A program made the position numbers and the translations under genes. From NCBI RefSeq assembly GCF_030412015.1, contig NZ_JASNRD010000001.1, positions 1 to 64,000 on the forward strand: 64,000 nucleotides of DNA. Direction: 5' to 3'. The DNA is from Massilia sp. YIM B02763. GTDB taxonomy: Bacteria > Pseudomonadota > Gammaproteobacteria > Burkholderiales > Burkholderiaceae_D. Below are positions 1,338 to 23,861 of the stretch, piece by piece; the stretch's first letter is position 1; the number at the start of each line of letters is the position of its first letter. The notes beneath the pieces are model-generated. The model did no database searches, had not been told where the DNA came from, and worked only from the letters and a program-made list of their open reading frames with translations.

Positions 1338-2165
1338 TCAACGGGAGCGCTGGTGAGCGCGTACCCAGCGCATCAGCTCCACGAAGGTGCCCGTCCAGTA
1401 TTCCTTGCGGTGGGCGGCGAGGTAGTCCAGCAGCTCGCGGTGGGCCGCTTCCGACGTCTGCAGGTAGTCGCCGCCCACGCCATGGAAGGTGAAGTTGACC
1501 ATGGTGCCGCGCGCGCCGGCCCGCTCGACGATGGCGATCAGTTCCTTCCCGCTCAGGCCCTCGGGTGCCAGCACCGGCACGGCCAGCGGATCGAGCGTGG
1601 CCATCGACGGGATCACGCCGTCGCCGCCGCCGACCTTGATGCCGACGAACTCGCCGGCGATGCCCGGCAGGTAGTCCCGGCCCGCGGCCAGGCGGTCGCC
1701 GCACGGCACCGTATAGGTTCGCTCTTTCGCGCCGTCGATCGCCGCGAGCATGGTGTTGGCCACCACGACCTGGTCGCGCATCTGGGCCGCGCTGGTCGTG
1801 TCGAGGTCCCGCTCCGGCTGCACCCAGGCATGGCCCGGGCTGCTGCCCGAACACTGGTGGAACAGCGAATGGTTGCCCAGTTCATGGCCGCGCGCGGCCG
1901 CGGCGCGCCATTCGGCCATGCGCGCGCGCACCGAGGGATTGGACAACTGCAGGTAGAAACTGCCTCTCAGGCCTGCGCGGTCGAGCGCCGGAATCGCATG
2001 GTCGAGCTGGGAGTCGAGTGCGTCGTCGTAGGAAAGGCTGACGGCGGCGCGCACGCCCTCGGGCCAGCGGAATGCGTCGGCGGCGGGTACCTGCCGCGCC
2101 GCCGAGAACAGCAGCACGAACGACATCGCGGCCAGCCGCCAGGCTCTGGGCATCAGGCTATGCAT
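1338..2165 (-). CDS. Polysaccharide deacetylase (NodB homology, CE4-like), secreted
   Basis: Polysaccharide deacetylase-family protein (275 aa) with an N-terminal signal peptide. It carries the first NodB motif (SYDD, D47-D48, base and metal ligand) and the metal-binding H99-S-L-F-H103. Such enzymes remove N- or O-acetyl groups from glycans with a divalent metal. Start chosen at 2165 because GGAGGAG lies 5 nt upstream; the longer reading frame to 2222 would run through the operator. The gene is divergent from the TonB receptor and has its own promoter and LacI-type operator, which places it in the same predicted regulon as the glucan genes. This suggests it trims acetyl groups from an imported or surface glycan; the actual substrate is not known. 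Confidence 0.85.
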   Translation of the reverse strand: MHSLMPRAWRLAAMSFVLLFSAARQVPAADAFRWPEGVRAAVSLSYDDALDSQLDHAIPALDRAGLRGSFYLQLSNPSVRARMAEWRAAAARGHELGNHSLFHQCSGSSPGHAWVQPERDLDTTSAAQMRDQVVVANTMLAAIDGAKERTYTVPCGDRLAAGRDYLPGIAGEFVGIKVGGGDGVIPSMATLDPLAVPVLAPEGLSGKELIAIVERAGARGTMVNFTFHGVGGDYLQTSEAAHRELLDYLAAHRKEYWTGTFVELMRWVRAHQRSR

Positions 2166-2196
2166 CGGGTCTCCTCCGTCGATTGGACGCCTTGTT

Positions 2197-2210
2197 TGGA
2201 AACGCTTCCA
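2197..2210. promoter_or_regulatory. LacI-family operator (deacetylase promoter)
   Basis: TGGAAACGCTTCCA, a 13/14 match to the perfect palindrome at 2405. It begins 13 nt downstream of the predicted -10 of the leftward promoter, at about +8 to +21, so bound repressor would block promoter escape. It is one of five related sites in the window. Confidence 0.8.
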
Positions 2211-2223
2211 GGGAATTTCCAAA

Positions 2224-2360: not shown

Positions 2361-2389
2361 TTGACAACTGATTTTCTTGAACATAAGAT
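2361..2389 (+). promoter_or_regulatory. Sigma-70 promoter for the TonB receptor/halogenase block
   Basis: -35 TTGACA (2361-2366), 17-nt spacer, -10 TAAGAT (2384-2389), close to consensus. The predicted start is near 2396. A 150-nt leader with AGGAGA before the ATG at 2568 follows, and the operator at 2405 sits 15 nt after the -10. The 402 bp between the two divergent genes hold only these two promoters and two operators. Confidence 0.8.
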
Positions 2390-2404
2390 TCCCTCGACAT
2401 CGTA

Positions 2405-2418
2405 TGGAAACGTTTCCA
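2405..2418. promoter_or_regulatory. LacI-family operator (TonB receptor promoter), perfect palindrome
   Basis: TGGAAACGTTTCCA, a perfect 14-bp palindrome with the central CpG typical of LacI-family operators. It lies at about +10 to +23 of the predicted TonB-receptor transcript. Confidence 0.82.
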
Positions 2419-2567
2419 GCCCCAGTGCCGATGGCGGGAAGGCCAGGAAAACACACCGGCAGCACCCCTCGCGCCGCGGCCGGTACATCGAGGAGCACCA
2501 CGGGGCGGGCATGCCCCGAGCAGTACCGACGCGATGAACAACAAGTAAAGAAAAACAGGAGACCCGA

Positions 2568-5528
2568 ATGCATCATCCCAAGTCGAACCCGAAACGCATC
2601 AGCCTGGCCGTGGCAAGCGCCTGCGCCGCCTTCGTCATTCCCGCCTACGCCCAGGACACCGGCAACAACAGTCCGTCCGACACGGTGGTGCCGACCGGCG
2701 CCGTGCAGCAGGTCGTCGTCAGCGGCATCCGCCAGTCGATGGCGTCGTCGCTGAACCTGAAGCGCAATTCCGACGGCATCGTCGACGGCATCGTGGCCGA
2801 GGACATCGGCAAGTTCCCGGACACCAACCTGGCCGAATCGCTGCAGCGCATCTCCGGCGTGTCGATCGACCGCCAGAACGGCGAAGGCCAGAAGATCACC
2901 GTGCGCGGCGTCGGCCCCGACTTCAACATGGTGCTGCTGAACGGCCGCCAGATGCCGACGTCGAACCTGGGCGACCTGAACGGCCGCGCCTTCGACTTCT
3001 CGAACCTGGCCTCGGAAGCCATCTCCCAGCTCCAGGTGTACAAGACCAGCCGCGCCGAGACCCCGACCGGCGGCATCGGCGCCACCGTCAACGTGATGAC
3101 GGCGCGCCCGCTCGACAAGCTGGGCACCTTCTCCAGCATCGGCGTCAAGGCGGTGCACGACACCTCCGCCAGCAACGTGCCGGGCGACGACCGTACCGGC
3201 AAGTCGACCACGCCGGAATTCTCCGGTATCTACAGCACCACTTCGAAGGACGGCCGCTTCGGCTTCGGCGTCTCCGCCAGCTACCAGGAGCGCAACCTCG
3301 GCTACGCCCAGGCTTCCGTGTCGAGCGGCTGGAAAGGCCCGTATCGCGCCGACGAAAGCGGCTACGGCACGATCCCGCAGACGGGCGCCGTCAACCGGCC
3401 GGACGGCAGCGACGTCTACCAGGTGCCGCAGAACCTGAACTACAGCTTCACGGGCGTCAAGCGCCAGCGCACCAACAGCCAGCTCGTGTTCCAGTTCGCG
3501 CCGACCAAGGAACTGACCACCACGCTGGACTACACCTATTCCGAGAACAAGCTGCACACCAAGCGCAACGACGTCTCGGCCTGGTTCAACTTCGGCCCCT
3601 CGACCTCGACCTGGACCAACGGCCCCGTCGCCGCGCCGCTCGTCTATACGGAGCAGCTCCCGGCCGGCACCGGCGACATCGCAATGGGCGCCGGCGACTT
3701 CGCCACCAAGACCGAGAACAAGTCGCTGGGCTTCAATGCCCAGTGGCGCGCCACGGCGGACCTGAAGCTCGAGTTCGACGCCCACCACTCGACCGCCGAG
3801 TCCATGGCCGACAGCCCGTTCGGCTCGTTCAACACGCTGGGCACCGCGAGCTTCTCGCGCGGCGACACCTCGGTCGACTTCTCGCAGGACTTCCCCGTGC
3901 TGAGCATCCAGGGCGCCGACTACAACCGCGCGCCGCAGCAGGTGACGGGCTCGAACTTCCAGAACGGCTACATGAAGGGCAAGATCGAGCAGGAGCAGAT
4001 CAAGGGCCGCCTGCGCATGCTGGAATCGTCGAACCTGAACTTCGGCCTCGGCGCCATCAAGGTCGACAACCGCTCGGCACTGTCGAACAACCAGCGCGAC
4101 AGCTGGGGCGGCGCGACCAAGCCGTCCGACTATCCGGCCTCCCTGTTCCACCCGGCCACCGTGCGCCAGTACTTCGACCAGATCGACGGCAGCGGCAATC
4201 CGGCCCTGTTCAACAATTTCTACACCTTCAACTTCGACCAGGTGCGCCAGACCGTGGCCGCCGCGTCCGGCCTGCCGGGCCTGTACGTGCCGAAGACCAC
4301 CTTCGACACCGACCAGCGCACCGAGGAAAAGTCCAAGCACCTGTACCTGCAGCTGAACACGGACTGGGACACGGCGCTGCCGATGCATACGTCGATCGGC
4401 GTGCGCTACGAGAAGACCGACGTCGTCTCGACGGCACTGGTGCCGGCATCGACCGCGATCAGCTGGGGCTCGCAGAACGAGTTCACGGTGATCCAGGGCG
4501 CGCCGACCTTCACCACCCTGACCGGCAAATACCATAACCTGCTGCCGAGCGTGGACTGGGACATGGACATCCGCTCGGACATGAAGGTGCGCGCGAGCTA
4601 TGGCGAAACCATCGGCCGCCCGCGCTACGACCAGATCGCCGGCGGCCAGATCCTGAACCAGCTGGCGCGCGTCGAAGGCGGCACCGGCTCGCAGGGCAAC
4701 CCGGCGCTGAAGCCCGTCAAGTCGAAGAACCTCGACCTGTCGTGGGAATGGTATTACGCGAAGCAGAGCTTCTTCTCGGTCAATATGTTCCACAAGGACC
4801 TGGAGAACTACGCGGGCCAGTCGCAGGTCGTCGAGACCCCGTTCAACCTGCACACCCCCGTCGGCGGCGCGCTGTGGAACGAGGCGCTCGCCAACGGCTG
4901 CGCGAACGCCGACACCACCTGCATCCGCAACTACATCTTCCGCAACCACGCCGGCAGCCAGGGCGTGACCCGCGGCCCTGACGACGCCAGCGGCAACGCC
5001 ACCGGCTCCATCGTGGGCCAGCCGGGCGACCCGGTCGCCAACTTCCGGATCACTTCCTTCTCGAACCAGAAGAAGGCGAGCCTGAAGGGCGCGGAACTGA
5101 ACCTGCAACACATGTTCGGCAATTCCGGCTTCGGCGTCTCGGCCAACTACACCTGGGTGCACTCGGGCCTGAAGTACGACAACGCGTCGGTCGGCGAGCA
5201 GTTCGCGCTGGTCGGCCTGTCGAACTCCGCCAACCTGGTCGGCATCTACGAGGACGCCAAGTGGAGCGTGCGCGCCGCCTACAACTGGCGCGACGAGTTC
5301 CTGTCCTCGACCTTCGACTCGGCCGGCCCGAACCCGCAGTACGTGGAGCCGTACGGCCAGCTGGACCTGAGCGTGGGCTACAACATCACGGACAAGCTGA
5401 GCGTGCAGTTCGAGGCGATCAACCTGACCGACGAGACGGCCCGCGTGCATGGCCGCCGCAAGGAACAGGCGCTGTACGTGACCCAGTCTGGTCCGCGCTA
5501 CTCGCTGGGCGCCCGCTACAAGTTCTGA
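2568..5528 (+). CDS. TonB-dependent outer-membrane receptor (Xanthomonas/Caulobacter type)
   Basis: Outer-membrane active transporter (986 aa) driven by TonB-ExbBD. A signal peptide is cleaved near AYA-QD (residue 28). The plug domain starts around residue 48 and includes a SLQRISGVSIDRQ segment and a VRGVGPDFNMVLLNGR segment, followed by a beta-barrel ending in the C-terminal phenylalanine required for BAM recognition (YKF). Length and plug sequence fit the large TonB receptor subfamily of Xanthomonas and Caulobacter used for oligosaccharide uptake. The gene heads a block of co-oriented genes and is preceded by a strong promoter with a LacI operator shared with the glucan genes. Cello- or beta-gluco-oligosaccharide uptake is an inference from that regulation, not visible in the protein. 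Confidence 0.93.
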   Translation: MHHPKSNPKRISLAVASACAAFVIPAYAQDTGNNSPSDTVVPTGAVQQVVVSGIRQSMASSLNLKRNSDGIVDGIVAEDIGKFPDTNLAESLQRISGVSIDRQNGEGQKITVRGVGPDFNMVLLNGRQMPTSNLGDLNGRAFDFSNLASEAISQLQVYKTSRAETPTGGIGATVNVMTARPLDKLGTFSSIGVKAVHDTSASNVPGDDRTGKSTTPEFSGIYSTTSKDGRFGFGVSASYQERNLGYAQASVSSGWKGPYRADESGYGTIPQTGAVNRPDGSDVYQVPQNLNYSFTGVKRQRTNSQLVFQFAPTKELTTTLDYTYSENKLHTKRNDVSAWFNFGPSTSTWTNGPVAAPLVYTEQLPAGTGDIAMGAGDFATKTENKSLGFNAQWRATADLKLEFDAHHSTAESMADSPFGSFNTLGTASFSRGDTSVDFSQDFPVLSIQGADYNRAPQQVTGSNFQNGYMKGKIEQEQIKGRLRMLESSNLNFGLGAIKVDNRSALSNNQRDSWGGATKPSDYPASLFHPATVRQYFDQIDGSGNPALFNNFYTFNFDQVRQTVAAASGLPGLYVPKTTFDTDQRTEEKSKHLYLQLNTDWDTALPMHTSIGVRYEKTDVVSTALVPASTAISWGSQNEFTVIQGAPTFTTLTGKYHNLLPSVDWDMDIRSDMKVRASYGETIGRPRYDQIAGGQILNQLARVEGGTGSQGNPALKPVKSKNLDLSWEWYYAKQSFFSVNMFHKDLENYAGQSQVVETPFNLHTPVGGALWNEALANGCANADTTCIRNYIFRNHAGSQGVTRGPDDASGNATGSIVGQPGDPVANFRITSFSNQKKASLKGAELNLQHMFGNSGFGVSANYTWVHSGLKYDNASVGEQFALVGLSNSANLVGIYEDAKWSVRAAYNWRDEFLSSTFDSAGPNPQYVEPYGQLDLSVGYNITDKLSVQFEAINLTDETARVHGRRKEQALYVTQSGPRYSLGARYKF

Positions 5529-5547
5529 CGGCGTAGCGTCGGCACCA

Positions 5548-5581
5548 CGACGGCGGGCGCGCTTTCCGGGCGCGCCCGTCG
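5548..5581 (+). terminator. GC-rich hairpin after the TonB receptor gene
   Basis: The inverted repeat GGGCGCGC/GCGCGCCC (5555-5562 and 5570-5577) is extended by CGAC/GTCG after a 3-nt bulge. No U-tract follows, so it may stabilise the receptor mRNA 3' end or partly attenuate read-through rather than terminate fully. A weaker A/T-rich inverted repeat (AAAAAG...CTTTTT) follows at about 5600-5626. Confidence 0.45.
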
Positions 5582-5672
5582 TTCGCACATCGGAGCCCCC
5601 AAAAAGTTGTTCCAAAAACAGCTTTTTCGGGTAGACTCGACCGGTCCGGGTTTTGCGTGACAGGAAGCAGCA

Positions 5673-7211
5673 ATGAGTAAGCCCATCGAACACATCGTGG
5701 TGGTCGGCGGCGGTTCCGCCGGTTGGCTGGTCGCCGGCGTGCTCGCCGCCGAGCACCGCCTGCGCATCACCCTCGTCGAATCGCCCGGCATCGCGCCCAT
5801 CGGCGTCGGCGAAGGCACCTGGCCGTCGATGCGCGACACGCTGCGCCGCATGGGCGTGGCCGAATCCGACTTCCTGCGCGAATGCGACGCCGCCTTCAAG
5901 CAGGGCTCGCGCTTCGACCGCTGGGTCGACGGCGGCGATGCCGACCGCTATTTCCACCCATTCAGCCTGCCGCAGGGCCACGGCGACGCCAACCTGGCCG
6001 CCGCTTGGACGGATAAGCATCGCGACGTGCCGTTCGCGGAACTGGTCAGCGCCCAGCCGCTGCTGTGCCTGGAGGGCCGCGCGCCGAAGCAGCCGCAGAC
6101 GCCGGAATTCGCCGCCGTCGCCAACTACGGCTACCACCTGGACGCCGGCAAGTTCGGCCTGTTCCTGCAGCGCCACTGCACCGAACGGCTGGGCGTTCGC
6201 CACCTGCTGGCCCACGTCGAGGAGGTGGTGACCGTGAAGGATGGCGAGCGGGCCGGCGACATCGCCGCCCTGCGCACGCGCGAACACGGCCTCGTCGAGG
6301 GCGACCTGTTCGTCGACTGCACGGGCATGGCGTCGCTGCTGCTGGGCGGGCACTACGGCGTGCCGCTCGTGCCGCAGCGGGACGTGCTGTTCAACGACCG
6401 CGCGCTGGCCGTGCAGGTGCCCTACGCTGCCGCGGACAGCCCCATCGCCTCGCAGACCACGTCCACCGCGCAGCAAGCGGGCTGGATCTGGGACATCGGG
6501 CTGCCCACCCGGCGCGGCATCGGCCACGTGTATTCCAGCGCCCACATGGCGGACGAGGACGCGGAGCGGCTGCTGCGCGCCTACGTCGCGGCGAGCGGCG
6601 GACCGGCCGATCCTCCGGCGGCGCGGAAACTGGCGTTCGAACCGGGCTACCGCGCCCGCTTCTGGGAACGCAACTGCGTGGCGATCGGCCTGTCGTCCGG
6701 CTTCATCGAACCGCTGGAAGCGTCGGCGCTGGCCCTCGTCGAGCTGTCGGTCGCCTGGCTCGCCGACGACATGCCGGCCACCCGCGCCCACATGGACATC
6801 GTCGCGCGCCGCTTCAACGAAGCGTTCACCTATCGCTGGGAACGGGTCATCGACTTCCTCAAGCTGCACTACGTGCTGTCGCGGCGCACGGGCGGCTACT
6901 GGGACGACCACCGGCGCCAGGAAACGATTCCCGAACGCCTGCGCGAGCTGCTGGCGCTATGGCGCACCCGGCCGCCGATGCACCGCGACTTCTACCGCAT
7001 CGAGGAAGTCTTCCCCTCGGCGAGCTACCAGTACATCCTGTACGGCATGGGCTTCCGGCCCGAGATGCCCGCACGCGGCTCCGACCTGCCGGCGCTGGCC
7101 GAGGCGCAGTTCCGCGAGGCCGCGCGCCTGGGCGCCCGCATGGCCGCGCTGCTGCCGTCCAACCGCGAGCTGCTCGACCATATCCGCACCCACGGCCTGC
7201 CGCCGGGCTAG
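5673..7211 (+). CDS. Flavin-dependent (tryptophan) halogenase-like protein, divergent
   Basis: Tryptophan-halogenase family flavoprotein (512 aa). The FAD-binding GGGSAG (residues 12-17) and the GVGEG segment (44-48) are clear, and K76 in AFKQGSRF aligns with the lysine that carries the chloramine or hypohalous intermediate in PrnA/RebH. The family WxWxIP signature is altered to WIWDIG (271-276), and the conserved EPxES(T) near the active site reads EPLEAS. The gene follows the TonB receptor by 144 nt and precedes sapC by 49 nt. Genomic pairs of halogenase with TonB receptors are known in Xanthomonas and Caulobacter relatives, with native substrates unknown. Halogenation is likely as a fold-level assignment; the altered motifs leave room for another flavin-dependent reaction. 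Confidence 0.85.
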   Translation: MSKPIEHIVVVGGGSAGWLVAGVLAAEHRLRITLVESPGIAPIGVGEGTWPSMRDTLRRMGVAESDFLRECDAAFKQGSRFDRWVDGGDADRYFHPFSLPQGHGDANLAAAWTDKHRDVPFAELVSAQPLLCLEGRAPKQPQTPEFAAVANYGYHLDAGKFGLFLQRHCTERLGVRHLLAHVEEVVTVKDGERAGDIAALRTREHGLVEGDLFVDCTGMASLLLGGHYGVPLVPQRDVLFNDRALAVQVPYAAADSPIASQTTSTAQQAGWIWDIGLPTRRGIGHVYSSAHMADEDAERLLRAYVAASGGPADPPAARKLAFEPGYRARFWERNCVAIGLSSGFIEPLEASALALVELSVAWLADDMPATRAHMDIVARRFNEAFTYRWERVIDFLKLHYVLSRRTGGYWDDHRRQETIPERLRELLALWRTRPPMHRDFYRIEEVFPSASYQYILYGMGFRPEMPARGSDLPALAEAQFREAARLGARMAALLPSNRELLDHIRTHGLPPG

Positions 7212-7260
7212 CCCGTTCCACCCACATAACGACAACGACAACGACAGAGACACAGACACC

Positions 7261-8016
7261 ATGGCCAATCACGCAATCCTCAACAACGTCGACCACAAGC
7301 ACCTGCGCATCGTCACGGCGCGCGGCGCGGAGTACGGCGACGCCGTCATGTCCGCCCTGACCTTCCCGGCCGAATTCCGCGACCTGCAGGCCTGCTACCC
7401 GATCGTGTTCGCGCGCGACGACGACGGCAGTTTCACGCCGCTCGCGCTGCTCGGCTTCGAGCAAGGGGAAAACCTGTTCCTCGGCCCGGACGGCTGGGAC
7501 GCGCCCGTCATTCCGCTGACCGTCGAGCGCCAGCCCTTCCTGATCGGGCGCGGCGGCGAGGAGCTGCAGGTGCACGTGGACATGGACCACCCGCGCGTGC
7601 GCACCGGCGGGCCGGAAGGCGAACCCGTGTTCCTGACCTATGGCGGCACCAGCGAATACCTGGAACGCATTTCCTCCGTGCTGCGCACCATCCACGAAGG
7701 GCTGGAAGCGTCGCGCGGCTTCACCGCGGCGCTGCGCGAACTGGACCTGCTGGAATCCTTCGTGCTCGACGTGGAGCTGGACGACGGCGCGCGCCACCAG
7801 CTGGCAGGCTTCTGGACGGTGGCGGAGGAGCGCCTGCAGGCGCTGGCGCCGGACCAGCTGGCCGCGCTGCACCGCGCCGGTTACCTGCAGGCGATCTACA
7901 TGCAGGTGGCGTCGCTGTCGCAGTTCCGCAACCTGATCGCGCGCCGCAACCGTGCCGACGCCGCGCGGAATGCGCAAAGCGTCCAAGCCGCCCTGCATCA
8001 TGCTGCCGGTCGATAA
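7261..8016 (+). CDS. SapC family protein
   Basis: SapC-family protein (251 aa). It has the usual start MANHAILNNVDHKHLRI, the central FPAEFRDLQACYPIVF block, and a C-terminal helical region. SapC was named from an S-layer operon of Campylobacter, but these cytosolic proteins are most often found beside TonB receptors and tryptophan halogenases, and their biochemical role is unknown. There is no signal peptide or membrane segment. The leader lacks a Shine-Dalgarno and is instead an A/C-rich, CAACGA-repeated stretch at 7228-7260. The 3' end overlaps the next gene by 17 nt, which suggests translational coupling. Confidence 0.85.
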   Translation: MANHAILNNVDHKHLRIVTARGAEYGDAVMSALTFPAEFRDLQACYPIVFARDDDGSFTPLALLGFEQGENLFLGPDGWDAPVIPLTVERQPFLIGRGGEELQVHVDMDHPRVRTGGPEGEPVFLTYGGTSEYLERISSVLRTIHEGLEASRGFTAALRELDLLESFVLDVELDDGARHQLAGFWTVAEERLQALAPDQLAALHRAGYLQAIYMQVASLSQFRNLIARRNRADAARNAQSVQAALHHAAGR

Positions 8017-9010
8017 GCGCGTGCGCGAGGTTGCCGTCCACGACGGCGCCATCCCGGACGAGATGCTGCGCGCGACCGCGCCCTACATCGTGCGCGGCCT
8101 CGCCGCCGACTGGCCGCTGGTACGGGCCGCGCGCAGCTCGCACGACGCGGCGGACGCCTACCTGCGCCGCTTCTACGGCGACGCCACCGTCCACGCGCTG
8201 CTGGGCCACCCGGCCATCGCGGGCCGCTTCTTCTACAACGAGGCGCTGGACGGCTTCAACTACCAGTCCGTGCGGGCGCGCCTGGACGGCATCCTCGACG
8301 AGCTGAAGGTCCAGGCGACGCAGGAACGCCCGGGCGCCATCTACGTGGGCTCGACCACCATCGATACGGCCCTGCCCGGCCTGCGCGCCGAGAACGACGT
8401 CGACCTGGGCGGGCGGGATGCGCTGGCCAGCATCTGGATCGGCAACCGCACCCGCATCGCCGCCCACTACGACCTGCCGGACAATATCGCCGTGGTCGCG
8501 GCCGGGCACCGGCGCTTCACGCTGTTCCCGCCCGAGCAGCTGGCCAACCTGTACGTGGGGCCCATCGACTTCACCCCGGCCGGCCAGCCGATCAGCATGG
8601 TCGACTTCCACGCGCCCGACTGGGAACGCTTCCCCCGCTTCCGCACGGCGCTGGAGCACGCGCAGGTGGCGGGACTTGGGCCCGGCGACGCGCTGTTCAT
8701 CCCGTCGATGTGGTGGCACCACGTGGAGGCGCTGGACCGCTTCAACATCCTCGTCAACTACTGGTGGCGCCAGTCGCCGGACTGGATGGACACGCCCACC
8801 AATTCGCTGATGCTCGCCCTGCTGACGATGCGCGAGCTGCCGCCGGCGCAGCGGCGCGCCTGGCAGGAGATCTTCCGCCACTACATCTTCGAACCGGACG
8901 AGGCGAACCTTGCCCACATGCCGGCGCAGCGCCGCTACGCGCTGGCGCCGCTGGACGAGGACGGCGCCCGCATCCTGCGCGGCCAGGTCCTGAAACGCAT
9001 CAACCGATAA
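8000..9010 (+). CDS. JmjC/cupin-like Fe(II)/2-oxoglutarate-type oxygenase
   Basis: Cupin_8/JmjC-like protein (336 aa from the ATG at 8000). The metal-binding H156-Y-D158 motif and a distal WWHH (H240/H241) give the HxD...H facial triad of Fe(II)/2-oxoglutarate hydroxylases. It also has the VVAAGHRRFTLFPPEQ strand pair typical of the factor-inhibiting-HIF-like group. It sits between sapC and the second halogenase, an arrangement recurring in TonB-linked halogenase loci. In-frame starts at 7952 and 7970 are possible and none has a good ribosome-binding site; 8000 was chosen for protein length. Substrate unknown; hydroxylation of a protein or small molecule is inferred from the fold. Confidence 0.82.
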   Translation: MLPVDKRVREVAVHDGAIPDEMLRATAPYIVRGLAADWPLVRAARSSHDAADAYLRRFYGDATVHALLGHPAIAGRFFYNEALDGFNYQSVRARLDGILDELKVQATQERPGAIYVGSTTIDTALPGLRAENDVDLGGRDALASIWIGNRTRIAAHYDLPDNIAVVAAGHRRFTLFPPEQLANLYVGPIDFTPAGQPISMVDFHAPDWERFPRFRTALEHAQVAGLGPGDALFIPSMWWHHVEALDRFNILVNYWWRQSPDWMDTPTNSLMLALLTMRELPPAQRRAWQEIFRHYIFEPDEANLAHMPAQRRYALAPLDEDGARILRGQVLKRINR

Positions 9011-9029
9011 GAACACCTCCGAGGAGACC

Positions 9030-10541
9030 ATGGAGACGAACAAGGAACGACAAGGCGGCAACCGTCCGGTGCGCCGCATCGTGATCGCCGGCGGCGGCAC
9101 GGCCGGCTGGATGGCCGCCGCCGCGCTCTCGCGCACGCTGGGCAAGGTGCTGGACATCAAGCTGGTGGAGTCCGACGAGATCGGCACCGTGGGCGTGGGC
9201 GAGGCGACCATCCCCAGCCTCGTGCACTTCCACCGCCTGCTCGACATCGACGAGCAGGAATTCATGGCCGCGACCCAGGCCACGTTCAAGCTGGGCATCG
9301 CCTTCGAGGGCTGGCGCCAGCGCGGCGAGGATTACATCCACTCGTTCGGCATGACCGGGACCGACCACTGGACGGCCGGCTTCCAGCACTTCTGGCACAA
9401 GGGCCGCGAGCGCGGCCTGGCCGGCGACTATGGCGACTACTGCCTGGAACTGGCGGCGGCGCGCGACAACCGCTTCGGCCACCTGCCGAACGAGGGCCTG
9501 AACTACGCCTACCACCTGGACGCGACCCGCTACGCGCGCTACCTGCGCCGTTTCTCCGAGCACTTCGGCGTCGAGCGCATCGAGGCCAAGATCGCCTCCG
9601 TCGACAAGGACGCCGGCGGCGACATCGCCGCGCTGGTGCTCGATTCCGGCACCCGCATCGAGGGCGACCTGTTCCTCGACTGCACGGGATTCCGCTCGCT
9701 GCTGCTGGGCCAGGCCCTGGGCGTCGGGTACGAGGACTGGTCGCAGTGGCTGTTCAACGACAGCGCCATCGCCGTGCAGACCGAGTCCGTCGGGCCGGCC
9801 GTGCCCTACACCCGCTCGATCGCGCACGACTGGGGCTGGCAGTGGCGCATCCCGCTGCAGCACCGCACGGGCAACGGCATCGTGTTCTCCAGCCGCTACG
9901 TCGACGACGCCACGGCACGCGCCGCGCTGCTGGCCAACGTCGAGGGCCGCGTGCTGACGGAGCCCCGCGTGATCCGCTTCACGCCTGGCCAGCGCAAGCA
10001 GGTCTGGGCCAGGAACTGCGTGGCGCTGGGCCTGGCCAGCGGCTTCCTGGAACCGATCGAATCGACCAGCATCCACCTGATCCAGCGCGCGCTGGTGCGC
10101 CTGCTGCAGACCTTCCCGACCGACGGCATCAGCCAGGCCGACGTCGACGAATTCAACGGCCAGGCCGATGCCGACATCCGCCAGATCCGCGACTTCATCA
10201 TCGCCCACTACAAGGTTACCAACCGCCGCGATACGCCGTACTGGCGCGACGCGTCCGCGATGGACGTGCCGGAGGCGCTGCGCCACCGCATCGCCCTGTT
10301 CCGCGAGACGGGCCAGGTCTTCCGCATCGCCAACGAGCTGTTCGCCGAGAACTCCTGGGTGCAGGTGATGCTGGGCCAGGGCATCCACCCCGAACAGCAC
10401 CACCGCAGCGCGGACCTGATGGGCGACGAGGAGTTGCGCGGCTTCCTCGAGAACATCCGCCGCGGCGTCGCGCAGACGGTGGCCCGGCTGCCGCAGCACG
10501 AGACCTACGTGCGCAAGTACTGCCCGGCGGGCAAGCCGTGA
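9030..10541 (+). CDS. Flavin-dependent (tryptophan) halogenase, canonical motifs
   Basis: Second tryptophan-halogenase family protein (503 aa), with all classical motifs intact: FAD-binding GGGTAG (21-26), GVGEAT (55-60), the candidate catalytic lysine K87 in TFKLGIAF, WQWRIP (270-275) that prevents monooxygenation in this family, and EPIEST with the active-site glutamate. Start at 9030 follows GAGGAG with 6-nt spacing. It ends in a GTGA overlap with the acyltransferase gene, so the two are translationally coupled. Compared with the upstream homologue it is the better candidate for a working halogenase. In related loci the natural substrate is unknown; indole-type brominases have been described for relatives. 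Confidence 0.9.
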   Translation: METNKERQGGNRPVRRIVIAGGGTAGWMAAAALSRTLGKVLDIKLVESDEIGTVGVGEATIPSLVHFHRLLDIDEQEFMAATQATFKLGIAFEGWRQRGEDYIHSFGMTGTDHWTAGFQHFWHKGRERGLAGDYGDYCLELAAARDNRFGHLPNEGLNYAYHLDATRYARYLRRFSEHFGVERIEAKIASVDKDAGGDIAALVLDSGTRIEGDLFLDCTGFRSLLLGQALGVGYEDWSQWLFNDSAIAVQTESVGPAVPYTRSIAHDWGWQWRIPLQHRTGNGIVFSSRYVDDATARAALLANVEGRVLTEPRVIRFTPGQRKQVWARNCVALGLASGFLEPIESTSIHLIQRALVRLLQTFPTDGISQADVDEFNGQADADIRQIRDFIIAHYKVTNRRDTPYWRDASAMDVPEALRHRIALFRETGQVFRIANELFAENSWVQVMLGQGIHPEQHHRSADLMGDEELRGFLENIRRGVAQTVARLPQHETYVRKYCPAGKP

Positions 10542-11689
10542 CGGCGGGCGCGTTCGCCGACAGCAAGCGCCACTACCCGATCCTGGACGGCCTGCGCGGC
10601 GTGGCCGCCGTGCTGGTCGTGGCCTTCCACCTGTTCGAGGCGCATGCGGCCAGCCGCTTCGAACAGCTGATCAACCACGGCTACCTGGCCGTGGACTTCT
10701 TCTTCGTGCTGTCCGGCTTCGTGATCGGCTATGCCTACGACGACCGCTGGGACCGCATGTCGACGGGCGACTTCTTCCGCCGCCGCCTCGTGCGCCTGCA
10801 TCCGATGATCGTCGTCGCCATGATCGTCGGCGCGCTGATGTTCGACTTCCAGGCCGGCCCCATCTTCCCGAAGATCGCCGACACGCCGCTGTGGCAGCTG
10901 CTGCTGGTGATGGCCGTCGGGATGACGCTGCTGCCGCTGCCGCCGTCGATGGACCTGCGCGGCTGGGGCGAGATGCATGCGCTGAACGGTCCCGCCTGGT
11001 CGCTGTTCTTCGAATATGTCGCCAACATCCTGTACGCGCTGGTCGTGCGCCGCTTCTCGAACGGCCTGCTGGCATTGCTGGTCTTCCTGGCCGGCTGCGC
11101 GCTCGCGCACCACACGGTGTTCGGCCCGAACGGCGACGTGATCGGCGGCTGGTCGCTGGATCCCGCGCAGCTGCAACTGGGCTTCACGCGCCTGATGTAC
11201 CCCTTCTTCGCCGGGCTGCTGCTGTCGCGCGTCGCGCGGCCGGGCCGCGTGCGCCACGCGTTTCCCTTGTGCGCCGTCCTGCTGGCGGCGGCGCTCGCGG
11301 TGCCGCGCTTCGGCGGGCCGGACACACTGTGGATGAACGGCCTGTACGAAACCGCGGCGATCGTGCTGCTGTTCCCGCTGCTCGTCTGGCTCGGCGCCAG
11401 CGGCGACGCCGGATCCGGTGCGATGGCACGCGCCTGCGGCTTCCTCGGCGCGATATCGTATCCGCTGTATATCGTCCACTACCCGTTCGTCTACACCTAT
11501 ACCGCCTGGGTGGCGAACAACAAGATCACCCTGGCCCAGGGAGCGCCGGTGGCGGCGGCGACGCTGCTGGGGTCGATCCTGCTGGCCTGGGCGCTGCTCG
11601 TCTGGTACGACATCCCCGTGCGGAGATGGCTGGGGCGGCGGATTACCTCGGATCCGGCGAAAACAGTTCTCGCTTTCGCGCGAAAATAA
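10538..11689 (+). CDS. Acyltransferase 3 (OafA/YrhL-type) membrane protein
   Basis: Integral membrane acyltransferase (383 aa) that transfers acyl groups, usually acetyl, onto carbohydrates at the inner membrane. Visible family features are the N-terminal ILDGLRGVAAVLVVAFH (catalytic His at its end), the VDFFFVLSGFVIG motif, the RRxxRLxP loop (FRRRLVRLHP) and about ten hydrophobic segments. The GTG start at 10538 overlaps the halogenase stop as GTGA, giving tight coupling. An acyltransferase tied to a halogenase is unusual. It may decorate the same glycan handled by the TonB receptor and the divergently encoded deacetylase, but this is inference. Confidence 0.88.
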   Translation: MTAGAFADSKRHYPILDGLRGVAAVLVVAFHLFEAHAASRFEQLINHGYLAVDFFFVLSGFVIGYAYDDRWDRMSTGDFFRRRLVRLHPMIVVAMIVGALMFDFQAGPIFPKIADTPLWQLLLVMAVGMTLLPLPPSMDLRGWGEMHALNGPAWSLFFEYVANILYALVVRRFSNGLLALLVFLAGCALAHHTVFGPNGDVIGGWSLDPAQLQLGFTRLMYPFFAGLLLSRVARPGRVRHAFPLCAVLLAAALAVPRFGGPDTLWMNGLYETAAIVLLFPLLVWLGASGDAGSGAMARACGFLGAISYPLYIVHYPFVYTYTAWVANNKITLAQGAPVAAATLLGSILLAWALLVWYDIPVRRWLGRRITSDPAKTVLAFARK

Positions 11690-11742
11690 GCGGCGCCGGG
11701 CGGCGTATGATCCCAGTCCTGTTCACACTGCTGGGAGTCACC

Positions 11743-12537
11743 ATGCCGACAAGCGCCCTCGCCCGCGCCACCGCAACCCCGTATTCCGGCTACGTCGTCG
11801 AGACGCAGCCGGGTTCCCTGCCCATGGGCGGTACCGTCCAGGACACGCCCGTCTACGCGCTCGACGCCTGGCCCGATGGCCTGCATGCGTCGCTGCCCGC
11901 CTCGGCCCCGTCGGCCCGTACCGACATCGACCTCGGCCCGCAACTGGCCTTCGTGGTCGACAACGTCGTCAGCCGGGAAGGCGCGCAGGCGCTGATCGAG
12001 ATCGCCGAGCACTTCGGCTTTCGGCCGGAAGCCCCGGGCATCGCCACGCCGCCGGGCATGCGCATGAACCTGGCGCTGCACTGGATGGCCGACCGCACCC
12101 TGATGGACACGATCTTCCGCGCGCTGGCGCCGCACCTTCCCGCCACCTTGAACGGCAAGGCGCTGTGGCCGCGCCTGTCCGAGCGCATCGACATGTACAA
12201 GTACCGCGAGGGCGACGAATTCCGCCGCCACATCGACGGCACCTGGCCCGGCTATGGCGTGAACGCGAGCGGCGACGCCATCGACACCTGGCCGGGCAGC
12301 CAGTCGCGCCTGTCGATGCTGTTGTACCTGAACGATGCCGACGATGGCGTGGAAGGCGGCGCCACGCGGCTGTGGGGCCGCAACGGCGCCACGGTGGACG
12401 TGCAGCCGCGCGCCGGATCGGCGCTGTTCTTCCAGCATGGCTTCGAGATCGGCTCCGTCATGCATGCGGGCCTGCCGGTCAAGGGCCGCGCGCCGAAGTA
12501 CGTCGCCCGCATCAACGTGCTGTACGACGCGGACTGA
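11743..12537 (+). CDS. 2OG-Fe(II) oxygenase (prolyl 4-hydroxylase-like)
   Basis: Prolyl-4-hydroxylase-like Fe(II)/2-oxoglutarate oxygenase (264 aa). The iron ligands H163-I-D165 occur in RRHIDG and the distal histidine is near H241 (MHAG), with basic residues after it suited to 2-oxoglutarate. The MYKYREGDEF segment before the HxD is typical of the P4Hc domain. Start at 11743 is supported by GGGAG 5 nt upstream; an in-frame ATG at 11707 is less likely. It is the last gene of the rightward block, 53 nt after the acyltransferase and convergent with mntP. Substrate unknown; it could hydroxylate a peptide, protein or small molecule linked to the halogenase pathway. Confidence 0.83.
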   Translation: MPTSALARATATPYSGYVVETQPGSLPMGGTVQDTPVYALDAWPDGLHASLPASAPSARTDIDLGPQLAFVVDNVVSREGAQALIEIAEHFGFRPEAPGIATPPGMRMNLALHWMADRTLMDTIFRALAPHLPATLNGKALWPRLSERIDMYKYREGDEFRRHIDGTWPGYGVNASGDAIDTWPGSQSRLSMLLYLNDADDGVEGGATRLWGRNGATVDVQPRAGSALFFQHGFEIGSVMHAGLPVKGRAPKYVARINVLYDAD

Positions 12538-13143: not shown

Positions 13144-13194
13144 GGAGATTCTTTTTCCGGCCGGGCATGGACGAAGGCATGCCCGCGCGGCCCG

Positions 13195-13320: not shown

Positions 13321-13351
13321 GATGCGGCATGGTACACCATCCGCCACAAAG

Positions 13352-14694: not shown

Positions 14695-15684
14695 TCAGGC
14701 GGCGGCGGCCGCGTGTTCGTCCAGCAGCGCGGCCACGCCGCGCAGGGCCGGATACGGTTCCGTGACGACCCAGGTCGGGATCTTCTGCAGGTAGCCGCGC
14801 AGGCGCCCCTTGTCCTCGAAGCGGCGGCGGAAACCGGAGGCGTTGAACTGGGGCCCCAGGCGCGGGACGATGCCGCCGCCGATATACATGCCGCCCGTGG
14901 CGCCCAGCGTCAGCGCCACGTTGCCGGCCACGCTTCCGAGGATCGCGCAGAACGCGTCCACCGTGGCGCGGCAGGCGGGGCAGCTGCCGTCCAGCGCCCG
15001 CGCCGTGATGTCGGCCGCGGCCAGGCGCTCGCCGCCAAGCGGACCGTTGAGCGCGCGGTGGATCGCCTCCAGGCCCATGCCGGACAGCAGCCGCTCGGCC
15101 GACACATGCCCTTCCTGCTGCCCGAGCTCGTCCCACAGCGCTTCCAGGATGCGGATCTCCTGGCGCGTGACGGGTGCGAAGCTGGCATGGCCGCCTTCTC
15201 CCGGCAGCGCCATCCAGCGACCGTTGCAGCGGACGATGCCGGACACGCCCAGGCCCGTACCGGGACCGACCAGGCCGATGGGCCGGCCCGGGACGGGGGC
15301 GAACTCGCCGTCGCCGACGCGCATGCGCCCTTCGTCGCCCAGGTGCGGCAACGCCATCGCCAACGCCGCGAAGTCGTTCACGACCAGCAACGTGTCCAGG
15401 CCGCGCTCGCGCCGCAGCGCCTCGATCGAGAAGCGCCAGTGGTGGTTCGTCATCGCGACCGCATCGCCCTCCACGGGATTGGCGATCGCCAGCGCCGCCG
15501 CGCGCACGCCGGCCGTGTCGACCCCACGCGCGGCTGCGCGGGCCAGGTAGTCGTCCATCGCCGCGCCGATCGTCGCGTGTTCGCAGCAAGGGAGCACCTC
15601 GAGGTCGGCGAAACCGCCGCCCGGCGCCTGCAGCGCGAAACGCGCGTTCGTTCCGCCGATGTCGGCAAGCAGGCGCAGCGTCAT
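14695..15684 (-). CDS. glk: Glucokinase
   Basis: ATP-dependent glucokinase (329 aa), cytosolic, making glucose 6-phosphate. The phosphate-1 motif [10 protein letters not shown] begins at residue 7. Further motifs are VVNDFAAL with the catalytic Asp, the [14 protein letters not shown] loop, the glucose-binding [12 protein letters not shown], and the GGMYIGGGI adenosine segment. The length fits the bacterial Glk group (about 320-340 aa). Its ATG overlaps the GH3 stop codon as ATGA, so it is translationally coupled to the beta-glucosidase that supplies its substrate. Confidence 0.95.
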
Positions 15685-18236
15685 TGCAGCTCTCCGCAGG
15701 CGACGTCCACGGCCGGTGCTGCCTGCGGCGACGGCGCCTGCGCGTCCCTGGCGCTGCCCAGCACGTCGATATTGCCGAAGGCGGCCGCGAACGGGCCACT
15801 GCTCGTCACTCTGAACGGCGTCGTCACCGCGTCGAGACGGACGCCCTTGGCAGTGAAGCAGGCCAGCGGGATGCGCACGGACTGGCGGCCCTTGCCGGCC
15901 AGGCGCGCGAACAGCTTCGTCGCGTCCAGCGGCGCGCCGCAAGCGCTGCCGCCGTCGCAGGCCATGGCGACCGTGACCTTGCCGGTGGGCGCAGACTGGA
16001 CCATCGTATCGAAGCGCAAGGCTCCGCCGTTCGCCAGCGCCGCCGGCAGCGCCAGCGGGCGGGTGCCGTGCGCTTCGTAGGTGGCCGGGCCCGTCCAGGT
16101 GACGAGGCGCGCATCCTGCTGCGTATTGATCTGGGCGACGGCCGCCGAAATGCCCGGCAGCGTCGTCGTGGCGTTCAGGTCCTGGCCCAGCGCCTGGACC
16201 CTGGCGCCGCTCTTGACCCGCAGCGGGAAGCTGGCGCGGTCGGCCGGTCCGAACAGGGGCCAGCTGTTGGAGGGGATGCAGCCGCCGGCCGGATAGCGCT
16301 CATCGAGCCGGCCCAGCGTCGAGCGCTCGCCGCGGCGCAGGCCGTAGCCGAAGGCGAACAGCGGCGCGTAGTCCTTGTCGCCCACGTTGAGCGGCGTCTG
16401 GCATACGCCCTTCGGCCAGGAGAACGACAACTTGCCCTGGAATTCGTAGGGTTTGCCGCCCGCCGGCGCGACCAGCAGGTCGGACACGCCCTTGCCCTCG
16501 GTGCCCGGCAGCCAAGCGGCGACGAAGGTGTCCGACAGGTTCATCAGGTCGTTGACCCACAGCGGACGGCCGGACAGGAACACGGTGACGACGGGCTTGC
16601 CCTTGCCGCGCACGGCCTGCAGCACGGCAAGGTCTTCCGGATAGCGGCTCGAATGGCGCAGCGTCCCGGACGGCACGATGTCGCCGTCGCCTTCCGCATA
16701 CGGCGCTTCGCCGATGACGGCGACCACGGCGTCGAAGCGGGACGGGTCCACGCCCTTGGCATCCGCGCTGTACGTGACCTGCGCTCCGGCCGCCTTCAGG
16801 CCGGCCAGGATCGTGTCGGCCGCTGGAAAATCGGCATTCGTGTTGGCCGTGCCCTGCCAGGTCAGCGCCCAGCCGCCCGTCTGGTTGGCCATGCTGTCGG
16901 CGGCCTTGCCGACGACGAGGATCCGCTTGCCCGGGGCCAGCGGCAGCGCCGGTCCCTCGTTCTTCAGCAGCACCAGCGATTCGCGCACGGCGCGGCGCGC
17001 CAGTTCGCGTGCCTGCAGCGCATCGTCCTTGCCGGCATAGGCGTTCTGCGAGGGCTTGCGGTCGAACACGCCGGCGCGCAGCTTGACGCGGACGATGCGG
17101 CTGACGGCATCGTCCAGGCGCGCCATCGGGATGCGGCCTTCCTCGACGTCCTTCATCGTATTCGCGATGAAGGCCTTCCAGTCGTTCGGCACCATGGCCA
17201 TGTCGATGCCGGCGTTGATCGCCTGGGCGCAATGGTCGTTGGTGCAGCCGGCCACTTCGCCGATGCCGTTCCAGTCGCTGACGACGAAGCCGTCGAAGCC
17301 CATCTCGTCCTTCAGGATGCCCGTCAACGCGCGCCGGCTGCCGTGCAGCTTGCCGTGCTTCGCGCCGGTGGCGACGTCGTCCCAGCTGTTGAACGAGGCC
17401 ATGACGGTCTGCGCGCCCGCCTGCAGGCCTGTCACGTAGCCCGGTGCGTGGATGGCGAGCATGTCGCGCTCGCTCGCCTTCGTCACGCCCGTATTGATGC
17501 CGTGCTCCGTGCCGCCGTCGCCCATGTAGTGCTTGATGCTGGCGATGACGTTGGCGTCGTCCTTGAACGCGCCCTGCATGCCCTTCACGTACACGCCCGA
17601 CATGTCGCCGACCAGCTTCGGATCTTCCGAGAAGCTCTCGTAGGTGCGTCCCCAGCGGTCGTCGCGCACCACGGCCACCGTGGGGCCGAAGGCCCACAGG
17701 ATGCCCGTCGCGCGCACCGCCTTGCCCGTGGCGGCCCCGATCTCCCCGACCAGCGCCGCATCGCGTGAGGCGCCCAGGCCGATATTGTGGGGGAACATGG
17801 TCGCGCCGTAGACGTTGTTGTGGCCGTGGACGGCGTCCGTGCCCCAGATCATGGGCACCTTGACGGCCATGTCGGTACGCATCGACGCCTCGTAGTAGGC
17901 ATCGGCCATCCTGAGCCAGTCGGCGGCGCGCGCATGCTTGTCGTTGCCCGGCCAGCTGCCGCCGCCGTTCAGCACCGAGCCGAGGTAGTACTTGCGCACG
18001 TCGTCGGGCGTGACGGTCTTGATCTCGGCCTGCGTGATCTGGCCGACCTTCTGCGCCAGCGTCATCTTCGCCACGATGGCGGCAACGCGTGCCTCGATGG
18101 CCGGGTCCTTCGCGATCGCGCTCTTCGCCTGGGGCCAGGCGGCCTGCTGCGCGCCGGCCACCACCGGCAGGGTCAGCGCCACGGCCAGCGCCAGGGCGTG
18201 CGGAACCAGATGCGCCACGGCGCGGTGCTTGTTCAT
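15681..18236 (-). CDS. GH3 exo-beta-glucosidase / glucan glucohydrolase, exported
   Basis: Glycoside hydrolase family 3 enzyme (851 aa) with a signal peptide cleaved near AGAQ (residue 30), so periplasmic or secreted. The catalytic nucleophile is D321 in [21 protein letters not shown] (about 235-246) binds substrate. The GH3 C-terminal domain (about 420-610) is followed by an extra C-terminal module of about 200 aa resembling the ExoP/Exop_C carbohydrate-binding-like domain of marine exo-1,3/1,4-beta-glucanases. It releases glucose from cellodextrins or mixed beta-glucans. First gene of GH3-glk-permease, with its own promoter and LacI operator. Confidence 0.93.
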
Positions 18237-18266: not shown

Positions 18267-18288
18267 CGATTGGAAACGATTCCAATCG
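18267..18288. promoter_or_regulatory. LacI-family operator (GH3 operon), extended dyad
   Basis: The core TGGAAACGATTCCA (18271-18284) is embedded in a longer dyad with perfect 9-bp arms CGATTGGAA/TTCCAATCG. The core begins 13 nt downstream of the predicted -10. A further half-site TGGAAACG lies at 18306-18313, inside the promoter spacer. Confidence 0.82.
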
Positions 18289-18297
18289 ACCTTGCCA

Positions 18298-18326
18298 ATA
18301 TTGAATGGAAACGGCAGCCCTGTCAA
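18298..18326 (-). promoter_or_regulatory. Sigma-70 promoter of the GH3-glk-permease operon
   Basis: Minus strand: -35 TTGACA (18321-18326), 17-nt spacer, -10 CAATAT (18298-18303). The -35 overlaps the stop codon of the upstream GH1 gene (18323-18325). Confidence 0.78.
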
Positions 18327-21990: not shown

Positions 21991-21995
21991 GGTGC

Positions 21996-22934: not shown

Positions 22935-22972
22935 CGGGTATCCTTCACGGGATGGTCTTCCTCAGGTGACAT

Positions 22973-23860: not shown

Positions 23861-23861
23861 G

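What the first reader, a model, noticed from the sequence alone, without database searches (positions are those of the whole stretch)
2361..12537. Sugar-regulated locus with two halogenases, SapC, JmjC-cupin, acyltransferase and prolyl-hydroxylase-like enzyme
Seven consecutive genes pair a TonB receptor with two tryptophan-halogenase-like flavoproteins, SapC, two Fe(II)/2-oxoglutarate oxygenases and an acyltransferase. TonB-halogenase-SapC neighbourhoods are known, but their natural substrate is not. Here the receptor promoter carries the glucan LacI operator, so the tailoring enzymes may be made when beta-glucans are released, for example during growth on plant or fungal walls. The product could be a halogenated, hydroxylated and acylated metabolite, or a modified receptor or peptide. 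This is the strongest candidate for an undescribed system in the window.
Basis: partly seen in the sequence, partly recalled or inferred. Interest (0 to 1): 0.8.

Follow-up and report, generated by a model that had tools for sequence, protein, structure and literature searches.

The report
Glucan receptor operon with protein-tailoring enzymes
A Massilia-type bacterium probably switches on an outer-membrane sugar receptor when beta-glucan is around, and the genes behind it form a set found in many bacteria (SapC, a hydroxylase-like enzyme and up to two halogenases) that may modify the receptor or another exported protein rather than make a secreted chemical, which gives a concrete lead on what these puzzling halogenases are for.

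Summary
The seven genes are real and at the stated places, but are not one unit. The conserved unit is TonB receptor-HalA-SapC-JmjC-HalB. The acyltransferase is in 7 of 57 other genus loci and the prolyl-hydroxylase-like gene in 0 of 57. The receptor's LacI palindrome is exact in 47 of those 57; 41 of the 47 lie beside glucan-use genes, and none of the 10 without it do. Its only other exact copy in the genome precedes a gene for a CBM56/KRE6-domain protein. The halogenase part has its own conserved promoter-like element (45 of 58), so glucan control of the enzymes is unproven. HalB is of the Xcc4156/BrvH type, native substrate unknown; 67 of 69 such loci with enough upstream sequence carry receptor, SapC and JmjC. 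HalA is repeatedly lost while SapC and JmjC stay. JmjC resembles FIH, a protein hydroxylase. Elsewhere SapC can sit beside two-partner and RTX exoproteins, though 20 of 46 other SapC loci show no recognised partner. Best reading: a cytosolic cassette acting on an exported protein, perhaps the receptor; not shown.

The parts
2361..2389 (+). sigma70-like promoter of the receptor gene (TTGACA-17-TAAGAT)
   Evidence: consensus scan, 10 of 12
2405..2418 (+). exact LacI-type operator TGGAAACGTTTCCA
   Evidence: exact copy upstream of the receptor in 47 of 57 other genus loci
2197..2210 (-). second operator, 1 mismatch, 13 bases downstream of the -10-like hexamer of the divergent deacetylase gene
1338..2222 (-). 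polysaccharide deacetylase gene, divergent from the receptor (start uncertain)
   Evidence: ORF; Polysacc_deac_1 42.7 bits
2568..5528 (+). TonB-dependent receptor, TIGR01782 (TonB-Xanth-Caul)
   Evidence: Pfam; NCBIfam 660 bits
5548..5585 (+). hairpin after the receptor gene, without a T run here
   Evidence: fold, z -1.37, weak
5632..5637 (+). conserved -10-like TAGACT in front of the halogenase part
   Evidence: 45 of 58 genus stretches after the receptor gene, 2.4 expected from mononucleotide shuffles
5673..7211 (+). HalA, flavin-dependent halogenase-like; nearest solved relative 2pyx
   Evidence: Lys76 and Glu349 kept in 51 of 51
7261..8016 (+). SapC family protein
   Evidence: PF07277 228 bits; AlphaFold pLDDT 97.4, no significant fold match
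8000..9010 (+). FIH-like JmjC/Cupin_8 oxygenase; start uncertain (7952, 7970 or 8000), overlaps SapC
   Evidence: HxD...H in 73 of 73
9030..10541 (+). HalB, flavin-dependent halogenase of the Xcc4156/BrvH type
   Evidence: 6y1w 777 bits, 6frl 465 bits; Lys87 and Glu344 kept in 59 of 59
10538..11689 (+). acyltransferase-3 membrane protein, optional add-on, overlaps HalB by 4 bases
   Evidence: PF01757; 7 of 57 other genus loci
11743..12537 (+). 2OG-Fe(II) oxygenase (PF13640), not part of the conserved set; start 11707 or 11743
   Evidence: 0 of 57 loci; strong matches only in the own genome among 61 genus genomes, plus one of 26 bits
13409..14683 (-). MFS transporter gene of the glucan locus
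   Evidence: MFS_1; conserved neighbour
14695..15684 (-). glucokinase gene
   Evidence: Glucokinase 349.5 bits; conserved neighbour
15681..18236 (-). GH3 glycosidase gene, operator at 18271-18284
   Evidence: Glyco_hydro_3
18323..19696 (-). GH1 glycosidase gene, operator at 19723-19736
   Evidence: Glyco_hydro_1 514 bits
19792..20820 (-). LacI-family regulator gene, presumed reader of the palindromes
   Evidence: LacI and Peripla_BP_3; conserved neighbour; binding inferred
20920..25106 (-). ABC sugar transporter genes (ATPase, two further genes presumed permeases, binding protein), operator at 25168-25181
   Evidence: ABC_tran/OB_MalK and SBP_bac_1 for the first and last

Best explanation
A beta-glucan (probably beta-1,3) uptake receptor under a LacI-type repressor is followed by a conserved cytosolic tailoring cassette. 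In loci with a SapC of the window's type the constant part is SapC plus an FIH-like JmjC oxygenase; the variable part is one or two flavin-dependent halogenases (HalA, HalB). The cassette most likely acts on an exported protein, first of all the co-encoded receptor, before it leaves the cytosol: SapC escorts or presents the chain, JmjC hydroxylates a residue, and the halogenases halogenate aromatic side chains. Shown by sequence: gene content, order, co-inheritance, conserved operator, separate promoter-like element, kept catalytic residues, repeated absence of HalA with remnants. Inferred: repressor binding, cytosolic location, a protein as substrate, the receptor as target, SapC as escort, halogenation as the chemistry.
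For: Co-inheritance: of 74 receptor loci with a SapC of the window's type (over 130 bits), 73 have JmjC; of 69 Xcc4156-type HalB loci with at least 7 kb upstream, 67 have receptor, SapC and JmjC there. The 7 same-genus genomes without SapC also lack the close receptor (best match 134 bits, against 1526 bits in the one SapC genome run beside them). Four closely related genomes keep receptor-SapC-JmjC with no Trp_halogenase family gene at all. HalA is absent in several branches of the receptor tree, with remnants in L063 and L080 and a short one in L042, while SapC and JmjC stay. JmjC's best solved relatives are FIH (83 bits) and JMJD5 (53 bits), protein hydroxylases. BrvH does not halogenate tryptophan, acts slowly on indole and may admit larger substrates; native substrates of BrvH and the Xanthomonas enzymes are unknown (passages of PMC5945002 and PMC7336383). 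SapC elsewhere can adjoin exported giants: TpsB (ShlB/FhaC type) in 6 of 46 loci (one weak), an ESPR/TPS-domain exoprotein in L065, an RTX protein in L150, and a same-strand ORF of 1400 aa or more in 13 of 46 against 5 of 73 module loci (Fisher p 0.003, chosen after seeing the loci). Catalytic residues are kept. Regulation.
Against: No aromatic receptor column changes with HalA in more than 1 of 8 comparisons, any residue in at most 2 (three comparisons share one sister group), although a site could stay after its enzyme is lost. The own genome keeps a 61%-identical receptor at C10 without the cassette, differing at only 1 of 154 columns conserved in at least 97% of cassette-linked receptors. 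JmjC is not needed everywhere: 9 loci with other SapC types have receptor and halogenase but no JmjC match, as have L104 and two Paucibacter loci. 20 of the 46 other SapC loci have no recognised partner. The activity known from relatives is on free indole. In Xanthomonas the set is not beside relatives of the window's GH1, LacI, MFS or glucokinase. The FIH 2-oxoglutarate lysine (position recalled) aligns with a variable residue.
Confidence: 0.4

Rival explanations
1. Metabolite tailoring: the halogenases and oxygenases modify a free aromatic compound (for example an indole) into a signal or antifungal made during growth on glucans.
For: BrvH brominates free indole (passages of PMC5945002); the operator's other exact site precedes a CBM56/KRE6-domain protein gene, which fits feeding on fungal walls.
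Against: None of the seven genes is a synthase and no further gene stands inside the set in the genus maps; ORFs under 70 aa and distant genes were not examined. Halogenases are lost where SapC and JmjC remain; JmjC resembles protein hydroxylases.
Confidence: 0.19
2. The cassette modifies a different protein or peptide encoded elsewhere, with the receptor as importer or merely co-regulated.
For: The C10 receptor persists without the cassette; no receptor column follows HalA; SapC also partners TPS and RTX proteins.
Against: Among the genes mapped, the receptor is the exported protein co-inherited with the set.
Confidence: 0.21
3. The enzymes process aromatic groups or aglycones that enter with plant or fungal glycosides through the receptor (detoxification or salvage).
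For: GH1 and GH3 genes beside the set in most genus maps and relatives of them beside 10 of 16 non-genus module loci.
Against: Halogenation does not open an aromatic ring for catabolism (general knowledge); in 20 Xanthomonas loci no relative of the window's GH1 and only one weak GH3 match (L211, 86 bits) lies in the fetched stretch, though L214 has a GH39 gene about 6 kb downstream.
Confidence: 0.12
4. HalA and HalB are not halogenases in the cell but flavin monooxygenases.
For: HalA has WxWDIG where HalB has WxWRIP; sub-threshold NCBIfam matches to QhpG and LodB, 20-31 bits.
Against: Lys and Glu of the active site (roles recalled) kept in both; HalB is close to enzymes with shown bromination.
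Confidence: 0.08

Closest known systems
Xcc4156 (PDB 6y1w) and BrvH (6frl), indole-brominating flavin-dependent halogenases of unknown native substrate
   Same: HalB is their close relative (777 and 465 bits) with the same motifs; 20 Xanthomonas genes at 84-90% identity to Xcc4156 lie in a receptor-SapC-JmjC-HalB set; BrvH too has a second halogenase gene beside it (PMC5945002 passage)
   Different: those 20 Xanthomonas loci lack HalA (Xanthomonas sp. AmX2, 71%, has it); in the five examined no palindrome like the window's was seen; activity of HalB untested
Carbohydrate utilisation loci with TonB-dependent receptors (Xanthomonas sux locus, PMC1790865, passages seen)
   Same: TBDR, glycosidase, inner-membrane transporter and a LacI-type regulator in one locus
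   Different: the tailoring cassette is not mentioned there: no 'halogenase', 'SapC', 'Pass1' or 'cupin' in the main text
FIH, asparaginyl hydroxylase (JmjC/Cupin_8)
   Same: HxD...H and the surrounding 109 residues align
   Different: the 2OG-binding lysine position is variable here; substrate unknown
SapC family in two-partner secretion and RTX loci
   Same: same family, encoded beside a large exported protein
   Different: no JmjC match there and, except a distant one in L146, no halogenase match
QhpG and LodB-type flavoproteins that modify proteins (function recalled)
   Same: weak sequence match in the FAD region and, for HalB with QhpG, residues 157-324
   Different: far below the curated cut-offs; not members

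Membership tests
Carbohydrate utilisation locus with TBDR | TBDR gene beside glycosidases and a sugar transporter | tested here: met
Carbohydrate utilisation locus with TBDR | shared sugar-regulator operator | tested here: met
   binding itself not tested
Carbohydrate utilisation locus with TBDR | receptor imports the sugar | not testable with these tools
   needs uptake assay
Flavin-dependent halogenase (HalB) | GxGxxG, Lys, WxWxIP, Glu (motif roles recalled; GxGxxG, Lys also named in PMC5945002) | tested here: met
   Gly, Lys and Glu 59 of 59; WxWxIP in 58 of 59
Flavin-dependent halogenase (HalA) | WxWxIP motif (definition recalled) | tested here: not met
   WxWDI followed by G, A or S in 51 of 51; Lys, Glu and both Trp kept
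Flavin-dependent halogenase (HalA, HalB) | halide-dependent halogenation | not testable with these tools
   needs enzyme assay
FIH-type JmjC hydroxylase | HxD...H iron triad | tested here: met
   73 of 73
FIH-type JmjC hydroxylase | 2OG-binding Lys (K214 of FIH, recalled) | tested here: inconclusive
   aligned residue varies: R44 E11 H9 K5 Q3 A1; the next Arg is invariant
Halogenated natural-product gene cluster | core synthase or precursor peptide | tested here: inconclusive
   none among the seven genes and no further gene of 70 aa or more inside the set in the genus maps; shorter ORFs and distant genes not examined
SapC family | PF07277 match over the full profile | tested here: met
   228 bits, positions 1-220 of 220
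SapC with a known fold | structural match to a solved protein | tested here: inconclusive
   Foldseek 0 matches at E<=0.001; VIA best Z 2.3

The most novel reading that the evidence does not exclude
A dedicated post-translational modification system for outer-membrane receptors: SapC is an escort for large exported surface proteins (TonB receptors, two-partner and RTX exoproteins), and in receptor operons it presents the chain to an FIH-like hydroxylase and to flavin-dependent halogenases, so that the BrvH/Xcc4156-type 'indole brominases' are really protein halogenases.
Probability: 0.24. Interest if true: 0.88.

Novelty: new variant of a known kind. Interest (0 to 1): 0.56.

Why it matters
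The native substrate of the BrvH/Xcc4156-type halogenases is an open question (PMC5945002, PMC7336383). Tying them to receptor-SapC-JmjC operons in Xanthomonas, Lysobacter, Massilia, Steroidobacter and other genera turns it into a test on one protein and one operon. If the receptor is modified, this would be a new kind of protein modification in bacteria and a source of halogenases for whole proteins. If not, the same experiments would reveal a sugar-linked halometabolite. SapC, for which no fold match was found here, gains a testable role with exported proteins.

Tried and rejected
Receptor columns following HalA loss: none above 2 of 8, no aromatic above 1. Receptor differences from the cassette-less paralogue: one column, D228N, too little to claim. 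Terminator after the receptor: hairpin present but z only -1.37 and no T run; in relatives many gaps show a hairpin-like stretch before TAGACT, but in the HalA-less L041 group TAGACT comes before it, and no control was run. The window's palindrome outside the genus: none within 2 mismatches on the scanned strand in 16 class/phylum module loci; present in Pseudoduganella buxea L247, one of ten named loci looked at. Rfam: nothing credible in the operon; sub-threshold microRNA and flavivirus matches are chance. SapC match to PCNA (22 bits): chance. SapC fold search: no significant match. Prolyl-hydroxylase-like gene as part of the set: rejected.

Literature on the receptor-halogenase-SapC association: searches in the open-licence library listed no paper that describes it. 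One search listed four papers holding both 'tryptophan halogenase' and 'TonB' and a few more pairs; I saw these only as listings, with titles on iron limitation, phenazines, oil and other subjects. Passages only were seen of PMC1790865, PMC2996990, PMC5945002, PMC7336383, PMC8269204, PMC4285296, PMC4911050 and PMC5343134. Subscription papers are not held; I recall, unverified, that such neighbourhoods appear in Xanthomonas and Caulobacter annotations.

Limits of the counts: the module set (73 loci plus the window) was defined by a SapC over 130 bits and a receptor ORF over 700 aa, so loci with other SapC types are counted apart (46). L049, L065 and L085 are genus loci of the other type. One second SapC copy of G251 was not fetched. 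The 59 class and phylum loci were picked by me from the listed matches, not at random. The stretch scanned for TAGACT is 420 bases after the receptor, which can run into the next gene. Contig ends cut some neighbours. Genes were recognised by phmmer against stop-to-stop ORFs, so frameshifted genes can be missed. The 1400-aa ORF comparison was made after seeing the loci, and long opposite-strand ORFs also occur in GC-rich loci.

Full report
1. What is there. The receptor is a TIGR01782 TonB-dependent receptor. The genes after it are tightly packed: gaps of 144 and 49 bases, an overlap, 19 bases, a 4-base overlap, and 17 or 53 bases. The window belongs to a 5.9-Mb genome. Contigs of its genus have the same lengths as named Massilia and Telluria records (727414, 491011 and 423005 bases), so it is of the Massilia/Telluria group; this is an inference.

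2. Regulation of the receptor. A promoter-like site (2361-2389) is followed by the exact palindrome TGGAAACGTTTCCA (2405-2418). Variants precede the divergent deacetylase, GH3, GH1 and ABC binding-protein genes. Genome-wide 8 places match within one mismatch; the reversed-pattern control gave 1. The only other exact copy lies about 95 bases in front of a gene for a protein with CBM56 and SKN1/KRE6 domains, which points to beta-1,3-glucan (inference). In the 57 other genus loci with receptor and SapC, 47 have the exact palindrome upstream; 41 of these lie beside relatives of the window's GH3, GH1, MFS, glucokinase or deacetylase genes, 6 have none of them in the fetched stretch, and the 10 without the palindrome have none either (Fisher p 2e-7). 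In L044 and L063, two of the 10, a ROK regulator lies upstream.

3. Regulation of the enzymes. Behind the receptor gene, 45 of 58 genus loci hold TAGACT within 420 bases, against 2.4 expected from shuffles: 45 of the 48 operator-type loci and 0 of the 10 others. It is -10-like. In 38 gaps searched for the operator only L050 had a weak match; L086 has an operator-like spacer; the window has none. A second promoter for the halogenase part is therefore likely, and dependence of the enzymes on glucan is not shown.

4. The conserved set. SapC occurs in 146 of 392 genomes of the family sample and 138 of 398 of the phylum sample. I fetched 60 of 61 genus SapC loci outside this genome and 59 further loci chosen from the lists. 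Of these 119, 73 have a receptor and a SapC of the window's type. With the window, the 74 show HalA+SapC+JmjC+HalB 48, SapC+JmjC 12, SapC+JmjC+HalB 11, HalA+SapC+JmjC 2, HalA+SapC 1. SapC was the search key, so its presence is by construction; JmjC in 73 of 74 is not. On the midpoint-rooted receptor tree HalA is missing in several separate branches. N- and C-terminal remnants remain in L063, a 5' part in L080, a short start in L042 and little in L043; the other HalA-less loci tested gave nothing convincing. Of 12 SapC genomes searched for halogenases because HalA or HalB was missing at a locus, four (G126, G214, G245, G361, one clade) have no Trp_halogenase family gene; the other eight have one elsewhere or at the other locus. 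Of 7 genomes without SapC, five have none. The acyltransferase is in 7 of 57 and the 2OG oxygenase in 0 of 57 other genus loci; the latter has two copies in the own genome and, in 60 further genus genomes, one weak match of 26 bits.

5. Link to studied halogenases. HalB matches Xcc4156 (777 bits), 9luq (560) and BrvH (465); HalA matches 2pyx (576), 9ltb (524) and 9lu2 (399). The passages I saw of PMC5945002 and PMC7336383 say that native substrates are unknown, that BrvH does not halogenate tryptophan, and that its site could admit larger substrates; neither paper's main text contains 'TonB' or 'SapC'. A scan of species genomes with Xcc4156 gave 492 relatives, of which the best 80 were kept. 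Of 69 with at least 7 kb upstream, 43 have receptor+HalA+SapC+JmjC, 24 the same without HalA, and 2 (Paucibacter) lack JmjC; 11 loci are cut too short. The 20 Xanthomonas loci at 84-90% identity all lack HalA (19 among the 24, one among the short ones); Xanthomonas sp. AmX2 (71%) has it. In L214 (X. hortorum) the neighbours are a TonB-domain gene, a GST, a peptidase and, about 6 kb off, a GH39 gene.

6. Enzymes and SapC. Active-site Lys and Glu (roles recalled) are kept in HalA (51 of 51) and HalB (59 of 59), and JmjC's HxD...H in 73 of 73. HalA carries WxWDIG in place of WxWxIP. JmjC aligns best with FIH. A crude look finds no signal-peptide-like start in HalA, SapC, JmjC or HalB, so they should be cytosolic. 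SapC was modelled from 84 sequences (pLDDT 97.4). No solved structure matches: 0 at E<=0.001 by Foldseek, best Z 2.3 by VIA-align 2; this does not prove a new fold.

7. SapC in other company. Of the 46 further SapC loci, 9 have a receptor plus HalA-type halogenase without a JmjC match, 6 have TpsB (one weak), 3 an OEP (TolC-type) gene, 13 a same-strand ORF of 1400 aa or more (5 of 73 module loci have one), and 20 nothing recognised. Pfam confirms ShlB/FhaC in L065 and L113, RTX repeats in L150, OEP in L137, and TPS and ESPR domains in the 3050-aa neighbour of SapC in L065, where SapC lies between TpsB and this exoprotein. Where a partner of SapC can be recognised it is thus often a large exported or outer-membrane protein, which favours a protein as the object of the cassette.

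8. Tests against the receptor as target. No receptor column follows HalA loss. The cassette-less paralogue in this genome differs at one of 154 conserved columns. On the other side, the 7 same-genus genomes without SapC lack the close receptor. The evidence therefore supports a receptor-linked cassette strongly, a protein substrate moderately and the receptor as substrate weakly.

9. Verdict. The seven-gene unit is not, and the metabolite reading is the weaker one. I class it as a new variant of a known kind: a carbohydrate receptor locus with a conserved tailoring cassette of unknown target.

Noticed in passing
13189-13327, - strand: Sub-threshold manganese (yybP-ykoY) riboswitch match, 37.1 bits against a gathering score of 45, E 3e-7, in front of an Mntp-family (putative manganese efflux) gene at 12574-13143.
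   Followed up: partly
L187:7452-11844 (own genome, contig C4): A second receptor-halogenase pair, without SapC, lies in a starch/maltodextrin locus with alpha-amylase and cyclomaltodextrinase-type genes.
   Followed up: partly
L189:3437-12666 (own genome, contig C7): A HalA-like halogenase lies beside a TonB receptor and relatives of the window's GH1, glucokinase and LacI: another sugar locus with a halogenase.
   Followed up: partly
L188:9890-11404 (own genome, contig C12): The fifth halogenase gene of the genome lies beside an alpha/beta hydrolase and a GMC oxidoreductase, not in a sugar locus.
   Followed up: no
L193:9235-14018 (own genome, contig C10): A 61%-identical receptor with a ROK regulator but without SapC, JmjC or halogenase; relatives such as L044 and L063 have SapC and JmjC behind such a receptor.
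   Followed up: partly
L191:7012-14181 (own genome, contig C37): A GH30/LacI/receptor locus uses the variant palindrome TGGCAACGTTTCCA three times; its LacI is close to that of the window (479 bits), so two related repressors may read sister operators.
   Followed up: partly
L065:8087-19901; also L098, L113, L116, L118: SapC family genes sit directly beside two-partner secretion TpsB genes, in L065 between TpsB and a 3050-aa exoprotein with TPS and ESPR domains.
   Followed up: partly
L043:13919-14545, L063:5982-6605, L067:5967-6590: A 2OG-FeII_Oxy_5 gene lies on the opposite strand downstream of these non-glucan copies of the cassette.
   Followed up: no
L214:11863-12693 and L072:13980-14945: A TonB C-terminal-domain protein gene lies downstream of the cassette in these two loci, perhaps a dedicated energiser of the receptor.
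   Followed up: no
L214, L218, L222 (Xanthomonas): Receptor, HalB and JmjC respectively appear split over two ORFs in these assemblies, by decay or sequencing error.
   Followed up: no
G000:C14:60629-61399: Second copy (63% identical) of the prolyl-hydroxylase-like gene in the own genome.
   Followed up: no
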